Part shown: positions 13,190-19,389 of the stretch, piece by piece
Position numbering within the stretch: position 1 is the first letter of the stretch
How the letters are laid out: each line of letters opens with the position of its first letter
Assembly: GCA_017411935.1 (NCBI GenBank)
Contig: JAFQPC010000098.1
Span: 1-20,361, forward strand
From: Clostridia bacterium
Lineage (GTDB): Bacteria; Bacillota; Clostridia; Oscillospirales; CAG-272
Length of the DNA: 20,361 bases
Direction of reading: 5' to 3'
The notes under the pieces: model-generated
What the model was told of the DNA's origin: nothing
Seen by the model: only the letters and a program-made list of their open reading frames with translations
The model's database searches: none
Position numbers and translations under genes: made by a program

Positions 13190-14128
13190 TCAGAAATTTT
13201 GGAAGAGCTCCGACGCATTTTTTAAAAGATTTTTTTGTGTGGTTTCTCCCGATACCGTCAGCGGTCGGGCATAGGGCTTTGCCGAAAACCAGGTGATCTG
13301 CCGCTTGGCGTAGCGCCGCGTCGCCGTTTTGAGGTCTTCTGCCGCCTCGGCAAGAGAGACGTGTCCGTCAAGATAGGGCAAGATCTCCTTGTAGCCGATC
13401 GCCTGCGCCGCCGTACGGTTCTTCTCAAAGACCCCCTCGGCGCGAAGCGCAGCGGTCTCCTCGACAAGCCCATCGTCGATCATGATATCCACGCGGGCGT
13501 TGATGCGCTCGTACAGCTGCTCGCGGTTCTCATAACTCAGATAGAGCACGCACGCGTCATAGCGCATACCGCCCTCGAGCGAGCGACGGTCGAGCTCGGT
13601 TTTGGTAATCCCCGCGGTTCGGTAAATTTCGATCGCGCGAAGCACGCGCTTGACATTGTTCGGATGCGTTGCTTCGGCGCTCTCGCGGTCGATCTCATAC
13701 AGCTCGCGCCAAAGGGCATCCGCCCCCTCTCGCTCGTAGCGAGCCCAAAGCTCGGCGCGAAGATCTTCGTCCACTGTGTCGGGCGCGAGGTCGTTCTTTC
13801 GCAGAAGCGCGTCGAGATACAGCCCCGTGCCGCCGCAGACGATGGGAAGCTTTCCGCGAGACGAGATTTCCTCAATAGCGCGCGTGGCGAGGGACACGTA
13901 GTCGGCGCAGGAAAAGTCCTCATCGGGCTCGCAAACGTCGATCAGGTGATGAGGAACGCGCGCGAGCTCGTCTGCCGTCGGCTTCGCCGTGCCGATATTC
14001 ATACGACGGTAGATCTGCATCGAGTCGCAGGAGACGATCTCTCCCCCGAGCTCTTCCGCAAGAGCGAGCGCCAGCGCGCTCTTTCCGCTTGCCGTCGGTC
14101 CTGCGACGGCGATGATTTTTTCGTTCAT
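13190..14128 (-). CDS. miaA: tRNA dimethylallyltransferase
   Basis: 312 residues, the usual family length. It transfers a dimethylallyl group from DMAPP to N6 of A37 in tRNAs that read UNN codons. Seen: P-loop GPTASGKS (10-17), CDSMQIYRRMNIGTAKPT (about 34-51), VPHHLIDV, GGTGLYLDALL (family signature), and the C-terminal TRRYAKRQITWF block that contacts the tRNA anticodon. The ATG overlaps the stop of the DUF2442-HTH gene as ATGA, with AGAGGAAG upstream, so translation depends on that gene. It is followed by the membrane-fusion-like gene after 60 nt. Confidence 0.97.
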   Translation of the reverse strand: MNEKIIAVAGPTASGKSALALALAEELGGEIVSCDSMQIYRRMNIGTAKPTADELARVPHHLIDVCEPDEDFSCADYVSLATRAIEEISSRGKLPIVCGGTGLYLDALLRKNDLAPDTVDEDLRAELWARYEREGADALWRELYEIDRESAEATHPNNVKRVLRAIEIYRTAGITKTELDRRSLEGGMRYDACVLYLSYENREQLYERINARVDIMIDDGLVEETAALRAEGVFEKNRTAAQAIGYKEILPYLDGHVSLAEAAEDLKTATRRYAKRQITWFSAKPYARPLTVSGETTQKNLLKNASELFQNF

Positions 14129-14565
14129 AAGCTTCCTCTGTCACGTCCGTTTCCATATTCGCGTTTCATCGCGTCCACAGAAACCACCCACTGTTTTCCG
14201 AATTTGCAAACGTCAACGCCGTTGACAAGCTTTCCATAAGAAATTGCTTTGCGAAGCGTGCTTTCGTTGAGCCCCCAAAGCTCGGTCGCGTCGCTGAACG
14301 CCATCAGTCCGTCAAAAGGGGTATCCACTTGAACGCCGTTCTCCCAAAGCTCATCGCAAGATAAGTCAAGATCATCATTCCAAACAATGCCGTATCCGCC
14401 GACATCTACGGCGACACAAGCAAACTCGGCGTCATTGATTTCTGCAAATATAGGAATCCGTTCCATGAGCGGCTTCACGTCATAAATTTTTGTGATCCCC
14501 TCCGCAAATTGAACGCTCAATTTGTATTCAGGGAGCGCAGAAACGGTTTTTATTTTGTGAAACAT
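14125..14565 (-). CDS. DUF2442 protein with C-terminal helix-turn-helix
   Basis: 146 residues. The N-terminal 75 residues fit DUF2442 (FHKIKTVSALPEYKL, YDVKPLMERIP, then VDVGGYGIVWNDDLDLSCDE, then LWENG). The C-terminal about 60 residues (FSDATELWGLNESTLRKAI, YGKLVNGVDVCKFGKQWVVS) look like an excisionase/MerR-type winged helix-turn-helix for DNA binding. The start was taken at the Met before FHKIK; the 14-residue upstream extension lies within the promoter region. Its promoter carries an inverted repeat between -35 and -10, suggesting autoregulation. It overlaps miaA by 4 nt and leads the long operon. DUF2442 function is unknown; relatives often occur with DUF4160 or toxin-antitoxin-like genes. 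Confidence 0.75.
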   Translation of the reverse strand: MFHKIKTVSALPEYKLSVQFAEGITKIYDVKPLMERIPIFAEINDAEFACVAVDVGGYGIVWNDDLDLSCDELWENGVQVDTPFDGLMAFSDATELWGLNESTLRKAISYGKLVNGVDVCKFGKQWVVSVDAMKREYGNGRDRGSL

Positions 14566-14597
14566 ACCGCACCTACTTTGATTTATTTTCAAACTAT

Positions 14598-14626
14598 ATT
14601 GTATCACGATACCGTGATTTTGTCAA
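14598..14626 (-). promoter_or_regulatory. Consensus promoter with internal palindromic operator
   Basis: On the - strand, TTGACA (14626-14621), a 17-nt spacer and TACAAT (14603-14598). The spacer contains ATCACG-GTAT-CGTGAT (14603-14618), a perfect 6-bp inverted repeat around 4 nt, placed to block RNA polymerase when bound. It is the only strong promoter found ahead of the miaA-to-rluD operon. Confidence 0.85.
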
Positions 14627-14685: not shown

Positions 14686-15339
14686 TTAAATCTTGTCACA
14701 AAGAACATCGGTGCAAAGCGCATCGAGACGGGCTTCAACTCTATGTGCACAATCAAGCAAATCATTCTCGTCAAGAACCATTCTCATTTGATCGATGATT
14801 GAAAGCTGAATTGACTTAACCAACTCAATTTTCTCTGCCCTTTGATCTTCTTTTTGCTGAATATCATCGTACATCTTCTCATACATTTCAAGCATTTTGA
14901 GCAGTGTTATCTCTCGAGTTTTGAATACGTCACAGATCTCTGTAATCTGCTCGTAGCGCGCCTCATTTTCTTCTTCGACAATCGAAGTGATCGCATCGCC
15001 CAAACGATGTAGCGAGGTGTTGCTATTTTCGGTAAGCTGTTTTTGCAGAATTGTGAGTTGTACAAAGATTTCTTTTGCGGTTAATGTATTCTGTTCCATT
15101 TTCTTTTCCTCCAAAATTTGATCCGGAGGACACGCAAGGCATATTTTATTTTCACCTACGAAGCGTGCCCTGCCGTTCTTTACAAGACCTTTTGCCCGTT
15201 TCGGGTAGGTCGCTTCATATTCATTTCCTTGCTCATCAACTACAATCACGTTTTTTTCGATGGGTGTCGCCCCCTTTGTATTGAATTTGCAACTGTTCTG
15301 TGACGCTGTTTTTTCTGATGGGTGCCGTCCCCGATTCAC
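14686..15339 (-). CDS. Hypothetical protein: small N-terminal domain plus coiled coil
   Basis: 217 residues on the longest frame; function not recognised. Residues 31-72 (VIVVDEQGNEYEATYPKRA, KNGRARFV, ICLACPP) form a compact strand-rich segment of a type I associate with clostridial hypothetical proteins. Residues about 85-215 are charged and helical, probably coiled coil. The start is unclear. The GTG at 15339 coincides with the predicted transcription start. The position where I would expect the initiator (before EKNVIVV) is ATC at 15261, with GGGGG 8 nt upstream. A GTG at 15249 is also in frame. A further ATG at 15099 follows a perfect GGAGG by 8 nt and would give a 137-residue coiled-coil-only product. 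The gene is monocistronic with its own promoter and terminator. Confidence 0.65.
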   Translation of the reverse strand: MNRGRHPSEKTASQNSCKFNTKGATPIEKNVIVVDEQGNEYEATYPKRAKGLVKNGRARFVGENKICLACPPDQILEEKKMEQNTLTAKEIFVQLTILQKQLTENSNTSLHRLGDAITSIVEEENEARYEQITEICDVFKTREITLLKMLEMYEKMYDDIQQKEDQRAEKIELVKSIQLSIIDQMRMVLDENDLLDCAHRVEARLDALCTDVLCDKI

Positions 15340-15380: not shown

Positions 15381-15408
15381 TTTTATTAAATCAACATCGC
15401 GTCCACAA
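15381..15408 (-). repeat. Direct repeat of the queA 3' end, distal copy
   Basis: This 28-nt stretch matches the queA terminus (17021-17048) at 24 of 28 positions, including an uninterrupted ATCAACATCGCGTC. On the - strand it still reads VDAMLI followed by a stop, echoing the QueA C-terminus GDAMLIE. The repeats bracket the AT-rich toxin-antitoxin-chaperone island. Confidence 0.7.
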
Positions 15409-15430
15409 TGTGTACGGAATATACGTCAAT

Positions 15431-15480
15431 CGTAGGGGCGTGCATTGCACGTCCGCGGACGACCGATGGTCGCCCCTACA
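15431..15480. repeat. Palindromic GTAGGGGCG element
   Basis: GTAGGGGCG (15432-15440) and CGCCCCTAC (15471-15479) are inverted ends. Inside are the palindromes TGCATTGCA and GTCCGCGGAC and a small GACCGATGGTC stem. It is GC-rich against an AT-rich background and resembles short palindromic repeats common in clostridial genomes. It seems to have interrupted the repeat starting at 15381. Confidence 0.65.
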
Positions 15481-15493
15481 AGTATAGGGGGGC

Positions 15494-15678
15494 TTTTATC
15501 CTATAAACATCGCATCTACGATGTTGATGCTATATAAGAAATTACCGCTTGGTAATGTTGCACAAATATCTTGGAATTTTTCTGCAACGACATTCATGAA
15601 AATTCCGTAGAAACTCACTGAATCCCCACTACGACTGGGGACTTTCTTTATAAGCATCGGGGTTCCGATGCTTATCAT
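15494..15678 (-). other. Second queA-end-like repeat with a short ORF and hairpins
   Basis: 15494-15521 matches the queA terminus at 22 of 28 positions. The same strand carries a 60-codon open frame (15496-15678) ending in INIVDAMFIG; the distal repeat reads a similar YSVHIVDAMLI. There is no promoter or convincing ribosome binding site. The start of the frame lies in an 11-bp hairpin, ATAAGCATCGG-GGTT-CCGATGCTTAT on the + strand (15650-15675). Next to it is a TCCCCA..TGGGGA hairpin (about 15622-15641). It may be a decayed gene end, a repeat module or a structured RNA; coding is doubtful. Confidence 0.35.
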
Positions 15679-15724
15679 ATGTAAGAAATAACTGCATTAA
15701 TTTGCACATGTCAATCCATAAACA

Positions 15725-15752
15725 AAAAATGGCAAAGAATTCTGCCATTTTT
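15725..15752 (-). terminator. Intrinsic terminator after the secB-like gene
   Basis: On the - strand, AAAAATGGCA pairs with TGCCATTTTT around an 8-nt loop, followed by more T residues. It lies 21 nt past the stop codon and closes the hicA-hicB-secB transcript. Confidence 0.8.
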
Positions 15753-15773
15753 CGTTATTGTAACATTCAGAAA

Positions 15774-16166
15774 TTATTTAGCTTTGGCAATTTCAATCGC
15801 AGAAAAGTCTATATTCACCTTTTCCAACATTAGTGGAGGCATTCCTGCTTTTGTTGTTAACTCTGCAATCATTGATTGCATATATGGGAACAATATATCG
15901 TATGCTTCAGCATGCACATTTTTCTTGTCTATATCGGTTTGTACTTTTCCACAGTTAAAAAAGCCCAAAACCTGAACGGTTACGGAAAACCAGTCCGGAT
16001 GTTCTTTGCATACTGCCGAAACATTAAAGGTAGCCAAGCAGTTTTCTTTATTTTCATCGAAATCTACAGTTAAGCCAAAACGATTTTCAATTTCTATCGT
16101 ACCCTCATCTTTAATGTCTATTAAAGATTGTATTTTAGGGTAAACTACTTTTTGTGTTTGTAACAT
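15774..16166 (-). CDS. SecB-like chaperone of a toxin-antitoxin-chaperone module
   Basis: 130 residues. The C-terminal part matches the SecB fold signature: AYDILFPYMQSMIAELTTKA (about 89-107) and MPPLMLEKVNIDFSAI (109-124) parallel the ILFPYAR..I and FPQLNLAPVNFDALF blocks of proteobacterial SecB. The N-terminal half is strand-rich. Classical SecB holds preproteins unfolded for SecA, but Gram-positive bacteria usually lack it. Solitary SecB-like proteins encoded after toxin-antitoxin pairs, such as Rv1957 of Mycobacterium tuberculosis, instead fold and protect the antitoxin. The start was chosen at the ATG with AGAGGTGA 5 nt upstream, 16 nt after the hicB stop; a longer frame into hicB was rejected. 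The third gene of the operon, AT-rich like its partners. Confidence 0.85.
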   Translation of the reverse strand: MLQTQKVVYPKIQSLIDIKDEGTIEIENRFGLTVDFDENKENCLATFNVSAVCKEHPDWFSVTVQVLGFFNCGKVQTDIDKKNVHAEAYDILFPYMQSMIAELTTKAGMPPLMLEKVNIDFSAIEIAKAK

Positions 16167-16182
16167 ATTACTCACCTCTAGA

Positions 16183-16686
16183 TCAATTAATATAACTATT
16201 AGAATATGGAGAACCGTATGAAAGAGGAAGCATAACTGTATAACTTGCATTAGATATTTCTTTACTCTCACTTATTGCAGTAACAGCCATCATTTTAACT
16301 TTTTCCACAGCTTTCTTAACAGCGGGCATTACATAATCCAGTGTTGATATACTACTATTTTGAGCAACAATTGCATCATTAACATACTGGTTCAAACTTA
16401 TCCCTTGCTTTTCAGCTAACTCTACAGCTCTGCGATGAACGGCAGGAGAACACCTAACTGTAAATTTCCCACTACATTCTCTAATTGCTTCACATGGTAC
16501 CTCTGGAATATCGATGCCATATTCTATAGCTGTTGCTAACCACTCTTCCTCATTCATTTGCAATTCTAATATTGCTTCCTCTTGCGTATCACCTTGACCA
16601 ACACAACCATTTAACAAAGGAGATTCTGCAATCCAAAACTCATGATTCTCCACTTTAGTTTTATATACTGTAAATGGATATTTCAT
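16183..16686 (-). CDS. hicB: HicB-like antitoxin with extended C-terminus
   Basis: 167 residues, longer than usual HicB antitoxins. Residues 1-60 fit the degenerate RNase-H-like HicB domain (YPFTVYKTKVENHEFWIAES, GCVGQGDTQEEAI). Residues 73-107 form a ribbon-helix-helix DNA-binding unit (GKFTVRCSPAVHRRAVELA, GISLNQYVNDAI). A further 60 residues (108-167), with hydrophobic patches YVMPAV, MMAVTAI and YTVMLPLSYG, match no HicB core element and may be a chaperone-addiction segment recognised by the SecB-like protein. The ATG overlaps the hicA stop as TGATG, with AAGGAGG in the hicA 3' end. It likely neutralises HicA and represses the shared promoter. Confidence 0.88.
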   Translation of the reverse strand: MKYPFTVYKTKVENHEFWIAESPLLNGCVGQGDTQEEAILELQMNEEEWLATAIEYGIDIPEVPCEAIRECSGKFTVRCSPAVHRRAVELAEKQGISLNQYVNDAIVAQNSSISTLDYVMPAVKKAVEKVKMMAVTAISESKEISNASYTVMLPLSYGSPYSNSYIN

Positions 16687-16937
16687 CACTGTTCCTCCTT
16701 GATTCTATCTATTAATTTCTTAATTTCTTTAATATATGCTTCTGCTACTGTATCTCCGTGAGAAGGTATTGGTATTACTGTTCCGGTTGGTTTGTGCACA
16801 ATCTTCATTTGATGTCTACCGCCTGAAACAACAATACATCCAAATGCTCTTACAATTTTTTCAATTTCAGCGACACGCATATCATTGGGCACTGGTTTCT
16901 TATAAAGTTTTTCCAAATACTTATCTAACTGTGCCAC
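16686..16937 (-). CDS. hicA: HicA-like mRNA interferase toxin
   Basis: 83 residues, a small dsRBD-fold toxin that cleaves mRNA independently of the ribosome. An N-terminal stretch LDKYLEKLYKKPVPNDMR precedes the core IEKIVRAFG, then VVSGGRHQMKIVH with His42 at the expected catalytic position, then IPIPSHGDTVAEAYIKEIKK, the C-terminal HicA signature. The start is GTG, with GGAGG 11 nt upstream. It is the first gene of the TAC operon; its promoter carries a short palindrome over the -10 box. It lies directly downstream of queA on the same strand, and no queA terminator was seen. Confidence 0.85.
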   Translation of the reverse strand: MAQLDKYLEKLYKKPVPNDMRVAEIEKIVRAFGCIVVSGGRHQMKIVHKPTGTVIPIPSHGDTVAEAYIKEIKKLIDRIKEEQ

Positions 16938-16969
16938 AATATTTTTATCCTCCTATATCAGCAGTATTC

Positions 16970-17000
16970 ATATGGTATCATATTTGCCACCATTTGTCAA
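16970..17000 (-). promoter_or_regulatory. TAC promoter with candidate HicB operator
   Basis: On the - strand, TTGACA (17000-16995), a 17-nt spacer and TACCAT (16977-16972). The palindrome ATATG-GTAT-CATAT (16970-16983 on +) covers the -10 box, a typical site for ribbon-helix-helix autorepression. Confidence 0.7.
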
Positions 17001-17020
17001 GATATAAATTGTAAATTTTC

Positions 17021-17048
17021 TTTTATTCTATCAACATCGCGTCACCAA
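17021..17048 (-). repeat. queA 3'-end repeat, proximal copy (candidate att site)
   Basis: This covers the last queA codons, the stop codon and 2 nt beyond. Copies lie at 15381-15408 (24 of 28 identical) and 15494-15521 (22 of 28), all in the same orientation. The intact copy completes the QueA terminus FGDAMLIE. Confidence 0.65.
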
Positions 17049-18093
17049 AGCTGAAGAAGCGATATTCTTCCCTCACTGCCGTCTCGTAGGCTTCCATCAT
17101 TTTCTCGCGGTTATAGAACGCCGAGACGAGCATCAGCAGCGTGCTCTCGGGCAGGTGGAAATTTGTAATGAGCGCGTCGACCGCCTTGAAGCGGTAGCCG
17201 GGGTAAATGAAAATGCCCGTGTCGCCCGACATCGCGGGGATCGTTCCGTCCTCGCGCGCCACGCTCTCGATCGTACGGCACGAGGTCGTTCCGACGCAAA
17301 TGAGCCGTCCGCCCTTGGCTTTGCAATCGTTGATGAGATCGGCGCTTTCCTTCGATACCGAGAAAAACTCCGAGTGCATCACGTGCTCGTCAATGCGCTC
17401 TGCCTTGACGGGGCGGAAGGTGCCAAGTCCGACGTGAAGCATCACGGGCGCGATCTTCACTCCCTTTGCCTTAATTTTTTCCAGCAATTCGGGCGTAAAA
17501 TGCAGTCCTGCCGTGGGCGCTGCCGCCGAGCCCTCCTCGCGGGCGTAGACCGTTTGATAACGGCTGTTGTCCGAGAGCTGCTCGGTGATATACGGTGGCA
17601 GCGGCATCAGACCGATGATGTTGAGCACCTCGTAGATATTTTCGTATTTTTCCTTGTCGTAAGTAAAGCGAATGATGCGGTTTCCCTCCTCGACGAGGTC
17701 GATCACCTCACCCGTCAGGATCCCACCGCCAAAGACCGAACGAGATCTCAGCCGCGCGCGCTTGCCCGGTTTGACGAGACACTCCCACGTGTCAAGGTCG
17801 CGCTGACGCAGAAGAAGCAGCTCGAGCGCCGCGTCCTCTCTGCCCTCGGCGTGTCCGTAAAGGCGCGCGGGAATGACCTTGGAATCGTTGATGACGAGCA
17901 CGTCGCCCTCGCGAAGATAATCGAGAATATCGTAAAACCGGCGGTGCTCCAGCGTTCCCTTTTCGCGGTCGAGCACCATCAGGCGCGAATGGTCGCGCTG
18001 CTCTGCGGGGTGCTGCGCAATGCGCTCGGGGGGCAGCTCATAATAAAAATCCGAGGTACGAAGCTCGGTTGGCTTTTTTTCGTTGACGATCAT
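17023..18093 (-). CDS. queA: tRNA preQ1(34) S-adenosylmethionine ribosyltransferase-isomerase
   Basis: 356 residues, close to the family norm of about 345. It transfers and isomerises the ribose of SAM onto preQ1 at tRNA position 34 to form epoxyqueuosine. Seen in order: [105 protein letters not shown], and the terminal FGDAMLI. The start was taken at the ATG with AGGA 5 nt upstream; the longer frame would need a TTG start. It is divergent from dapA. The queA 3' end is the boundary of the AT-rich island. Confidence 0.97.
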
Positions 18094-18160: not shown

Positions 18161-18182
18161 TAATTGGAAGATACATATAATT

Positions 18183-18370
18183 ATGATAGAGGTGCATCGC
18201 GTCACCGCGCTCCGTCAAGGCTGCCGAGCCGCAGAGACGGTCCTGCGAGGGCGGGTTGCCGAAGAGGCGGTACGTCGGCGCGTCCGTTCTCTGGTCCTGC
18301 CGATTCATAGTCGGCGGACTGTCATCAAAGATGCAGAATATCGTTTGATGGAGAGCTATCTGTTGTTGTC
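18183..18370 (+). promoter_or_regulatory. Lysine riboswitch (L-box) aptamer
   Basis: The conserved landmarks occur in order: GATAGAGGTGC at the 5' side, TTGCCGAAG (GCCGAAG at 18258-18264), CTGG, GGACTGTCATC, and TTTGATGGAGAGCTATCTGTTG at the 3' side, the same series I recall from the Bacillus lysC leader. P1 pairs GATAG (18185-18189) with CTATC (18356-18360). P5 pairs CATCAAA (18323-18329) with TTTGATG (18344-18350). A GTCC..GCCGA / TCGGC..GGAC stem fits P4. It sits in front of dapA, the first committed step to lysine, so lysine should switch expression off. Confidence 0.93.
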
Positions 18371-18495: not shown

Positions 18496-19389
18496 ATGAG
18501 CAAACTCAAGAAAACCATCTTTACGGGTGCGGCAACCGCCATCGTTACGCCCTTCAAGCAGGGCAAGATCGACTACGACAGCTTCGGCAAGATCATCGAA
18601 GACCAGATCGCCAACAAGATCGACGCCATCGTCGTCGCAGGTACGACGGGCGAGGCGGCAACGCTGACGCACGAGGAGCACTGCGACTGTATGCGTTACG
18701 TCGTCGAAAAGGTCGAAGGACGCGTTCCCGTCATCGCGGGCACGGGCTCGAACGACACCGCTTACGGCATTGAGCTCTCGCAATACGCTTGCGAGGTCGG
18801 TGCTGACGCGCTTCTGCTCGTCACCCCCTACTATAATAAAGCAACCCCCAAGGGACTGATCAAGAACTTCCTCGAGACGGCGGAAAAGACCACCAAGCCG
18901 ATCATTCTTTACAACGTTCCCTCGCGTACGGGCTGTAACATTCCCCTCTCGGTCTACAAGGAGCTTGCCAAGCACGAGCGCATCGTCGCCGTCAAGGAAG
19001 CTTCGGGCAACATCAGCGCGATCGCCGAGCTGATCTCCGAGTGCGGAGACAGCTTTGACATCTATTCGGGCAACGACGACCAGATCGTTCCGATCATGTC
19101 GCTCGGCGGTAAGGGTGTCATCTCGGTGCTCTCGAACGTACTTCCCCGCCAGACGCACGAAATGGTCAAGATGTGCCTGGATAACAACTACCACGGTGCA
19201 ACGCAAATGCAGCTCTACTACCTCAAGCTCATCAACGCCCTTTTCTGTGAGGTCAACCCCGTTCCCGTCAAGACGGCAATGGCAGAGCTCGGCTGGTGTG
19301 ACGTGGAAATGCGTCTGCCTCTTTGCGAAATGGACGATGCCAACAAGGCAAAGCTTCTCTCGATCATGAAGGACTACCGACTGCTGTAA
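18496..19389 (+). CDS. dapA: 4-hydroxy-tetrahydrodipicolinate synthase
   Basis: 297 residues, the usual length. It condenses pyruvate with aspartate-semialdehyde in the first committed step of diaminopimelate/lysine synthesis. Seen: TAIVTPFKQGKIDY, AGTTGEAATLTHEE (Thr50-Thr51), TGSNDT, TPYYNKATPKGL, YNVPSRTGCNIP (Tyr139), and the Schiff-base lysine in VAVKEASGN (Lys167). AAAAGGAG lies 8 nt before the ATG. It is controlled by the upstream lysine riboswitch and followed by a MITE-like element and dapB on the same strand. Confidence 0.97.
   Translation: MSKLKKTIFTGAATAIVTPFKQGKIDYDSFGKIIEDQIANKIDAIVVAGTTGEAATLTHEEHCDCMRYVVEKVEGRVPVIAGTGSNDTAYGIELSQYACEVGADALLLVTPYYNKATPKGLIKNFLETAEKTTKPIILYNVPSRTGCNIPLSVYKELAKHERIVAVKEASGNISAIAELISECGDSFDIYSGNDDQIVPIMSLGGKGVISVLSNVLPRQTHEMVKMCLDNNYHGATQMQLYYLKLINALFCEVNPVPVKTAMAELGWCDVEMRLPLCEMDDANKAKLLSIMKDYRLL

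What the first reader, a model, noticed from the sequence alone, without database searches (positions are those of the whole stretch)
15774..16937. Candidate HicA-HicB-SecB toxin-antitoxin-chaperone (TAC) operon in a Clostridia-like genome
Three consecutive small genes on the - strand encode a HicA-like toxin, a HicB-like antitoxin and a SecB-like chaperone, with one promoter at the front and one terminator at the end. The SecB call rests on the ILFPY and PPLMLEKVNIDF blocks. Canonical SecB is essentially a proteobacterial export factor, so a solitary SecB-like gene in a Gram-positive-type genome, directly after an antitoxin, points to a TAC system. The best-known TAC is HigBA-Rv1957 of Mycobacterium; a HicAB-linked version in a Clostridia background would be little explored.
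Basis: partly seen in the sequence, partly recalled or inferred. Interest (0 to 1): 0.85.

Follow-up and report, generated by a model that had tools for sequence, protein, structure and literature searches.

The report
HicAB toxin-antitoxin module with SecB chaperone
Three small bacterial genes form a self-poisoning switch in which a toxin is held back by an antitoxin that itself seems to need a dedicated helper protein; switches of this type are already known, and this one is a new copy, apparently acquired as mobile cargo by a Clostridia-type genome.

Summary
On the minus strand lie hicA (16686-16937), hicB (16183-16686) and a SecB-like gene (15774-16166), tightly coupled. Family scans and a confident SecB model (pLDDT 90; nearest solved structures SecB and the M. 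tuberculosis TAC chaperone Rv1957) support the calls. It reads as a toxin-antitoxin-chaperone (TAC) module. The strongest new evidence is in HicB: a 60-residue C-terminal extension, its end predicted disordered, as in chaperone-addicted antitoxins. Among 88 related hicB loci, 15 of 20 with a tail of 40 residues or more have a SecB-like gene next door (10 of 20 by the strict test), against 0 of 68 with shorter tails. The module looks like cargo: 36% GC in a 52% GC window, bounded by a 23-bp repeat of the queA end found only twice in the draft genome, and missing in the nearest relative. A HicAB TAC is not new: Bordes 2016 tested one from Methylomonas. The premise that SecB hardly occurs in Gram-positives is weak: SecB-like genes without a toxin-antitoxin neighbour are common in this bacterial family. 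Most novel lead: a second, diverged chaperone-like lineage also sits behind hicAB. Chaperone dependence and the trigger, perhaps phage, are inferred.

The parts
16686..16937 (-). hicA: HicA-like toxin, 83 aa, GTG start
   Evidence: Pfam HicA_toxin E 8.4e-6, 26.2 bits against a cut-off of 27; 11 of 13 aligned HicA proteins match the family; His42 (in GGRH) and His60 invariant in 13 of 13
16183..16686 (-). hicB: antitoxin, 167 aa, with N-terminal UPF0150/HicB-like domain and a HicB (PF05534) domain of the ribbon-helix-helix kind
   Evidence: Pfam HicB PF05534 E 4.6e-15 over cut-off; AlphaFold2 model pLDDT 83.6; best PDB matches are HicB structures, though none reaches E 0.001 (6g26, E 4.6e-3)
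16186..16365 (-). C-terminal extension of HicB (residues 108-167), candidate chaperone-addiction (ChAD) region; a helix to about residue 137, then mostly disordered
   Evidence: segments with pLDDT under 50: 142-156, 163-167; absent from short HicB relatives; occurs with a SecB-like gene in 15 of 20 loci against 0 of 68
15774..16166 (-). secB-like chaperone gene, 130 aa
16972..17000 (-). sigma-70-like promoter site TTGACA-17-TACCAT ahead of hicA
   Evidence: 10 of 12 matches; the number of such sites in the region is at chance level
15721..15756 (-). terminator-like stem with T-run just behind the SecB-like gene
   Evidence: inverted repeat I7; listed by the scan on the + strand, reads as stem plus T-run on the minus strand too
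17021..17043 (-). direct repeat copy 1: 3' end of queA
   Evidence: GACGCGATGTTGATNNAATAAAA; exactly two copies with up to 2 mismatches in the 1.3-Mb draft genome; the repeat finder D1, 86% over 28 nt
15381..15403 (-). direct repeat copy 2: far end of the insert
15381..17020 (.). segment of about 1.64 kb that carries the module, 36% GC (window 52%)
   Evidence: missing in the nearest relative, where queA is followed directly by the orf217 gene (L223); GC

Best explanation
A chromosomal toxin-antitoxin-chaperone (TAC) module of the HicAB type. HicA is a small mRNA-cleaving toxin. HicB blocks it and probably represses the operon through its ribbon-helix-helix domain. HicB carries a 60-residue tail, its end disordered, that should make it unstable until the SecB-like protein, as a tetramer, binds that tail. 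When the chaperone is titrated away, by unfolded proteins or possibly by a newly made phage protein, HicB is degraded and HicA is released to stop growth. The module arrived as mobile cargo at the queA-miaA slot. Shown here: gene order, families, predicted SecB fold, HicB tail, tail-chaperone association, presence/absence at the slot with flanking repeat. Inferred: RNase activity, HicB's dependence on the chaperone, the tetramer, the trigger, the benefit to the host.
For: Families and order; SecB fold, with Rv1957 bound to its ChAD peptide (5mtw) among the closest structures; HicB tail and predicted disorder; HicB proteins fall into two length classes: 13 of 113 at most 125 aa, 98 of 113 at least 146 aa, 2 between; 15 of 20 loci with tails of 40 aa or more have a SecB-like gene behind hicB, 0 of 68 with shorter tails (Fisher p 5e-13; strict class 10 of 20, p 4e-8); HicA-like ORF upstream in L020, L023, L024, L035, L038, L045, L068; slot evidence; a relative with a decayed SecB remnant and a shortened HicB tail (L044); functional precedent of a HicAB TAC (PMC5105189 section 8); anti-phage precedent for CmdTAC and MqsRAC (PMC9519451, PMC11618068, passages).
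Against: No experiment on this module. Five of 20 long-tail HicB loci (L040, L042 and the Chloroflexota L052, L053, L055) have no SecB-like gene seen behind them. Fisher's test ignores relatedness: with it taken into account only 4 well-supported independent pairs remain; none goes the wrong way, but the sign test cannot reach 0.05 (median p 0.25 broad, 0.5 strict). The tail cut-off of 40 was set after seeing the lengths. The HicB tail lacks the LAA end reported for CmdA. HicA is just under Pfam's cut-off and its profile matched no solved structure. Of the module's three proteins only the chaperone matched any PADLOC model; no defence-island context was tested.
Confidence: 0.85

Rival explanations
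1. An ordinary two-gene HicAB system that happens to sit ahead of an unrelated solitary SecB-like chaperone gene; HicB needs no helper.
For: SecB-like genes without a toxin-antitoxin neighbour are frequent in this bacterial family (28 of 43 rows with known surroundings). HicAB-type loci with short HicB and no SecB are common among relatives (68 of 88 loci). Five long-tail loci lack the chaperone.
Against: The 68 loci with a short HicB tail have no SecB-like gene behind hicB (0 of 68). The genes are coupled with a 16-nt gap and lie together in one segment that is absent as a whole in the nearest relative. In the tree the window SecB groups with L020, also hicB-linked (100/99 support).
Confidence: 0.08
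2. The third gene is a general export chaperone working with SecA, placed by chance in a toxin-antitoxin operon.
For: The tested TAC chaperones (Mtb, Mmet, Vcho, Glov) can replace E. coli SecB when overproduced (PMC5105189 section 8).
Against: Its best NCBIfam SecB score is 39.2 bits against a cut-off of 143. By low-identity profile alignment the three acidic residues named for SecA binding (PMC6377645 passage) are not acidic here: Hi-D27, Hi-E31 and Ec-E77 face K11, L15 and T63. No match in 29 same-genus genomes.
Confidence: 0.04
3. A decayed or inactive remnant of a mobile toxin-antitoxin system.
For: Patchy distribution; one related locus (L044) does show decay.
Against: All three frames are open, with starts and RBS-like stretches; four database proteins 76-92% identical to the SecB keep full length (130 aa, P0001-P0004), which suggests constraint.
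Confidence: 0.03

Closest known systems
Mmet-TAC, HicAB-SecB of Methylomonas methanica (Bordes 2016, PMC5105189; passages and section 8 read)
   Same: HicA toxin, HicB antitoxin with C-terminal extension (ChAD taken as residues 119-159 there, tail 108-167 here), SecB-like third gene; chaperone needed for neutralisation there
   Different: A proteobacterium (recalled), not Clostridia; I did not fetch its sequence, so no direct comparison was made
HigB1-HigA1-Rv1957 TAC of M. tuberculosis (5mtw; PMC6377645 and PMC3968373, passages)
   Different: Toxin and antitoxin families differ (HigBA against HicAB); chaperones only distantly related
CmdTAC / PD-T4-9 anti-phage system of E. coli (PMC9519451, PMC11618068, passages)
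   Same: SecB-like third component; PADLOC PD-T4-9_C matches the window chaperone at E 1.7e-10
   Different: CmdT is an ADP-ribosyltransferase and CmdA another kind of antitoxin ending in LAA; no PADLOC model matches the window's toxin or antitoxin
Two-gene HicAB systems (for example solved HicB 6g26, 6hpb)
   Same: HicA and HicB families; HicB model matches these structures best
   Different: Those HicB chains are about 137 residues long against 167 here, and have no chaperone gene (recalled)
Streptococcus proteins of unknown function 2o2a and 2hng (SP1558)
   Different: Weaker match, rmsd 4.6-4.8; no toxin-antitoxin link examined

Membership tests
TAC (toxin-antitoxin-chaperone) | Toxin, antitoxin and SecB-like chaperone genes in one operon | tested here: met
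   gene order and spacing; transcription as one unit not shown
TAC (toxin-antitoxin-chaperone) | Third protein has the SecB fold | tested here: met
TAC (toxin-antitoxin-chaperone) | Antitoxin carries a C-terminal extension absent from two-gene relatives | tested here: met
   60-residue tail; SecB-like gene in 15 of 20 long-tail against 0 of 68 short-tail loci; five long-tail loci without it
TAC (toxin-antitoxin-chaperone) | Chaperone required for neutralisation of the toxin | not testable with these tools
   needs co-expression
TAC (toxin-antitoxin-chaperone) | Chaperone binds the antitoxin tail | not testable with these tools
   no complex prediction offered; ChAD regions of tested TACs share no significant similarity (PMC5105189 section 8), so no motif to look for
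HicAB type II toxin-antitoxin | HicA family toxin | tested here: inconclusive
   Pfam HicA_toxin E 8.4e-6 and best match, but 26.2 bits against cut-off 27; 11 of 13 aligned relatives match at E 0.01; no match to a solved HicA by sequence profile. I take it as HicA on this and on its place
HicAB type II toxin-antitoxin | Conserved catalytic histidine of HicA | tested here: inconclusive
   a His after the glycine-rich stretch (GGRH in the window) is invariant in 13 of 13; that this is the catalytic one is recalled, not aligned to a solved HicA
HicAB type II toxin-antitoxin | HicB family antitoxin | tested here: met
   PF05534 E 4.6e-15, over cut-off
CmdTAC / PD-T4-9 | ADP-ribosyltransferase toxin and CmdA antitoxin | tested here: not met
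   no PADLOC match for the window's toxin or antitoxin at E 1
CmdTAC / PD-T4-9 | Antitoxin ends in LAA (ClpXP tag) | tested here: not met
   HicB ends SYIN; none of the 98 long HicB proteins printed (the window's included) ends in LAA
Export SecB (SecA partner) | Acidic SecA-binding cluster | tested here: not met
   K11, L15, T63 at the three sites, by a low-identity alignment
Export SecB (SecA partner) | Score over the curated cut-off of an NCBIfam SecB equivalog | tested here: not met
   seven SecB models matched, none over cut-off; best 39.2 bits against 143

The most novel reading that the evidence does not exclude
HicAB operons of Clostridia have acquired SecB-like helpers more than once, from resident chaperones. 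The window type uses a SecB proper. A second, very diverged type sits behind hicAB in L085, L086, L087 and L183 (and on a viral contig, L082) and is kin to an orphan family encoded beside a comM-like gene in 14 genomes of one genus of the same family (profile match probability 98.8%), while only faintly matching SecB (48%). If so, chaperone addiction evolves by capture of whatever SecB-like protein is at hand, and the HicB tail evolves with it.
Probability: 0.3. Interest if true: 0.6.

Novelty: new member of a known kind. Interest (0 to 1): 0.4.

Why it matters
How TAC modules gain their chaperone dependence is an open question (stated as such in PMC4257090, passage). This set of loci, mostly from Clostridia, gives a natural series: hicB with short tail and no chaperone, with long tail and chaperone, with long tail and no chaperone, and with decayed chaperone. 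That makes the evolution of chaperone addiction testable by comparison. It also shows that SecB-like genes with no toxin-antitoxin neighbour, whose work in Gram-positives is unknown, are common in this family and recur in the same chromosomal places.

Tried and rejected
Phage or plasmid origin of the SecB: no tblastn match in 50,697 phage or 72,556 plasmid records at E 0.01, and of 87 pattern matches in viral contigs none encoded a relative. HicB relatives are on 3 viral contigs (L080, L081, L082); L080 and L081 have a 136-aa HicB and no SecB-like ORF seen behind it, L082 has the diverged type.

One origin of the hicB-linked SecB genes: the tree splits them, but a single clade is not rejected (p-AU 0.099); several rows have long branches, so origins stay open.

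CmdTAC membership: rejected for the window. CmdTAC-like loci occur elsewhere in the order: L013 clearly (toxin model E 3.6e-8, chaperone model 5.3e-15), L143 weakly (toxin 0.0036); in L166 only the chaperone model matched. L144 resembles L143 by eye and was not tested.

Sequence-only comparison with solved SecB: E 0.14 at best for the single protein, 6.6e-7 with a profile; hence the fold model.

Literature: seven searches over open-licence PubMed Central papers only. None of the papers listed and opened describes a Clostridia HicAB TAC, but Sala 2013, the main survey, is not held, and the 2014 review counts TA-linked SecB outside alpha-, beta- and gamma-proteobacteria (44 of 70), so I do not claim absence from print. 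PMC12795458 and PMC12619734 were opened at passages and proved beside the point.

Weak points of the tail count: the window was put into the strict class by hand on its Pfam match, because its longest ORF start fell outside the gap range of the script; the weakest strict members are L038 (E 0.018) and L181 (E 0.0026). The five 'broad' loci (L082, L085, L086, L087, L183) were added by shared motif and by the profile match. Of 105 hicB rows, 8 duplicates, 8 with incomplete HicB and 1 with too little downstream DNA were dropped before the count. Short HicB rows were not each checked for a hicA partner.

On re-checking, one search showed that one tree row called solitary, L006, comes from another family of the same order, and that no row called solitary has a toxin-antitoxin-like ORF within 200 nt upstream.

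Full report
What is there. Between queA (17023-18093) and a small gene of unknown function, three minus-strand genes follow each other: hicA 16686-16937 (83 aa), hicB 16183-16686 (167 aa), secB-like 15774-16166 (130 aa). hicA and hicB overlap by one base and 16 nt separate hicB from the SecB-like gene. Pfam gives HicA_toxin (E 8.4e-6, 26.2 bits, just under the cut-off of 27), HicB (E 4.6e-15) and SecB (E 7.8e-11). The promoter and terminator are plausible, but such sites occur at near-chance numbers.

The antitoxin tail. HicB has an N-terminal HicB-like domain, a PF05534 domain and then 60 more residues, with pLDDT under 50 at 142-156 and 163-167. Of 113 HicB proteins found (the window's included), 13 are at most 125 aa, 98 at least 146 aa and 2 in between. 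I gathered hicB loci from named genomes, viral contigs and whole genomes and measured tail and downstream gene. To avoid circularity the SecB profile for the strict test used 17 SecB genes not next to hicB. Of 105 hicB rows, 88 were used (8 duplicates, 8 with incomplete HicB, 1 with too little DNA dropped). Tail of 40 residues or more: 10 of 20 with a SecB-like gene in the strict class (the window put there by its Pfam match), 15 of 20 when five loci with a diverged chaperone-like gene are added. Shorter tail: 0 of 68. On the tree of the HicB core both traits change at least 9 times. Paired comparisons never go the wrong way, but only 4 supported independent pairs exist, too few for significance. 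Against the rule stand five long-tail loci without such a gene (L040, L042, L052, L053, L055). L044 (Eisenbergiella tayi) has a HicB tail of 28 residues and only a remnant of a SecB gene, which looks like joint decay.

Order in relatives. A HicA-like ORF, hicB and a SecB-like gene are seen in a row in L020 (Ruminiclostridium MAG, the nearest by HicB, 67% over 107 columns), L023 (Eubacteriaceae), L024 (Firmicutes UBA1702), L035 and L038 (Mediterraneibacter), L045 (Clostridiales VE202-21) and L068 (Atribacteria); L046 (Lachnospiraceae) has hicB and the chaperone gene but no upstream hicA in my listing. So linkage in Clostridia is real.

Mobility. The segment 15381-17021 has 35.9% GC in a 51.8% window. 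It is bounded by GACGCGATGTTGATNNAATAAAA, the end of queA, at 17021-17043 and again at 15381-15403; with up to 2 mismatches these are the only two copies in the 1.3-Mb, 67% complete draft. A third, weaker copy with 3 mismatches is at 15494. In the nearest relative (L223, QueA 92% identical) queA is followed directly by the orf217 gene and the module is missing; in L224 and L229 queA and miaA lie next to each other; in L230 and L235 the same slot holds a RelB-YafQ toxin-antitoxin pair. Of 29 same-genus genomes none has a SecB match, and the own draft has only this one. No recombinase was seen in the insert; how it moved is open.

Mechanism. By precedent, HicA cleaves RNA (recalled), HicB holds it, and the chaperone folds and protects HicB by binding its tail. 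Bordes 2016 showed for the HicAB TAC of Methylomonas methanica that toxin inhibition requires the chaperone (section 8). In CmdTAC, phage capsid protein takes the chaperone, ClpP degrades the antitoxin and the toxin is freed; MqsRAC also protects against a phage (passages). A phage trigger here is a guess. The window's HicB does not end in LAA, so a different degradation signal would be needed.

What is known and what is not. TAC is known, a HicAB TAC is known and tested, SecB-like genes in Firmicutes are in print, and TA-linked SecB outside alpha-, beta- and gamma-proteobacteria has been counted (44 of 70 there; PMC4257090, passages). This is therefore a new member of a known kind. Of 43 rows with known surroundings in the SecB tree, 28 have no toxin-antitoxin-like gene within 200 nt upstream (judged by eye). 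Their neighbours include spoIIIAH (L113, L116), recX (L133, L134), a SIS-domain glmS-like gene (L131), a murJ-like gene (L128) and a U32 peptidase (L126), each confirmed by Pfam. A HigBA-like link (L008: antitoxin clear, toxin weak) and CmdTAC-like loci (L013, L143) occur too. And hicAB in L085, L086, L087, L183 and L082 is followed by a diverged protein that matches a comM-linked orphan family (98.8%) far better than SecB (47.6%). For four of these five (L082, L085, L086, L087) I asked Pfam and got no SecB match, and the ten members of the orphan family got none either.

Verdict. A sound TAC module of the HicAB type, apparently acquired as cargo, of moderate interest by itself; the wider series of tail and chaperone states in Clostridia is the more useful result.

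Noticed in passing
L145-L147, L150-L154, L156, L160-L164 (14 genomes of genus g9), for example L160:1962-2393: Orphan family of about 140 aa (A6) with a comM/Mg-chelatase-like gene on the same strand in all 14 loci, directly ahead in 13 and only as a partial ORF 1 kb away in L156; only faintly SecB-like (32% profile probability), no SecB match in Pfam, strongly related to the diverged gene behind hicAB in L085-L087.
   Followed up: partly
L113, L116, L119, L122: SecB-like gene 90-150 nt behind spoIIIAH (Pfam confirmed in L113 and L116, by eye in the other two) in genomes of the window's family; its function there is unknown.
   Followed up: partly
L133, L134; L131, L132; L005, L128; L126, L135: Other SecB-like genes in recurring places: behind recX, behind a glmS-like gene, behind a murJ-like gene, ahead of a U32 peptidase gene.
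   Followed up: partly
L230:2237-2774, L235:1279-1825: The same queA-miaA slot holds a RelB-YafQ toxin-antitoxin pair in two same-genus genomes: perhaps a small hotspot for such modules.
   Followed up: partly
window 14125-14607: DUF2442 plus helix-turn-helix gene that matches a PHROG annotated excisionase (E 5.8e-41); it lies in the same variable slot.
   Followed up: no
window 14686-15339: Protein with a start (VVDEQGNEYEATYPKRAKGLVKNGRARFV) shared with relatives, no Pfam match over cut-off; it is the gene directly behind queA in the relative without the module.
   Followed up: no
window 18179-18366 (+): Lysine riboswitch (55 bits) ahead of the gene at 18496-19389, which reads as a dihydrodipicolinate synthase (recalled, not searched).
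   Followed up: no
L044:3300-3650: Eisenbergiella tayi: remnant of a SecB gene behind a hicB with shortened tail.
   Followed up: partly
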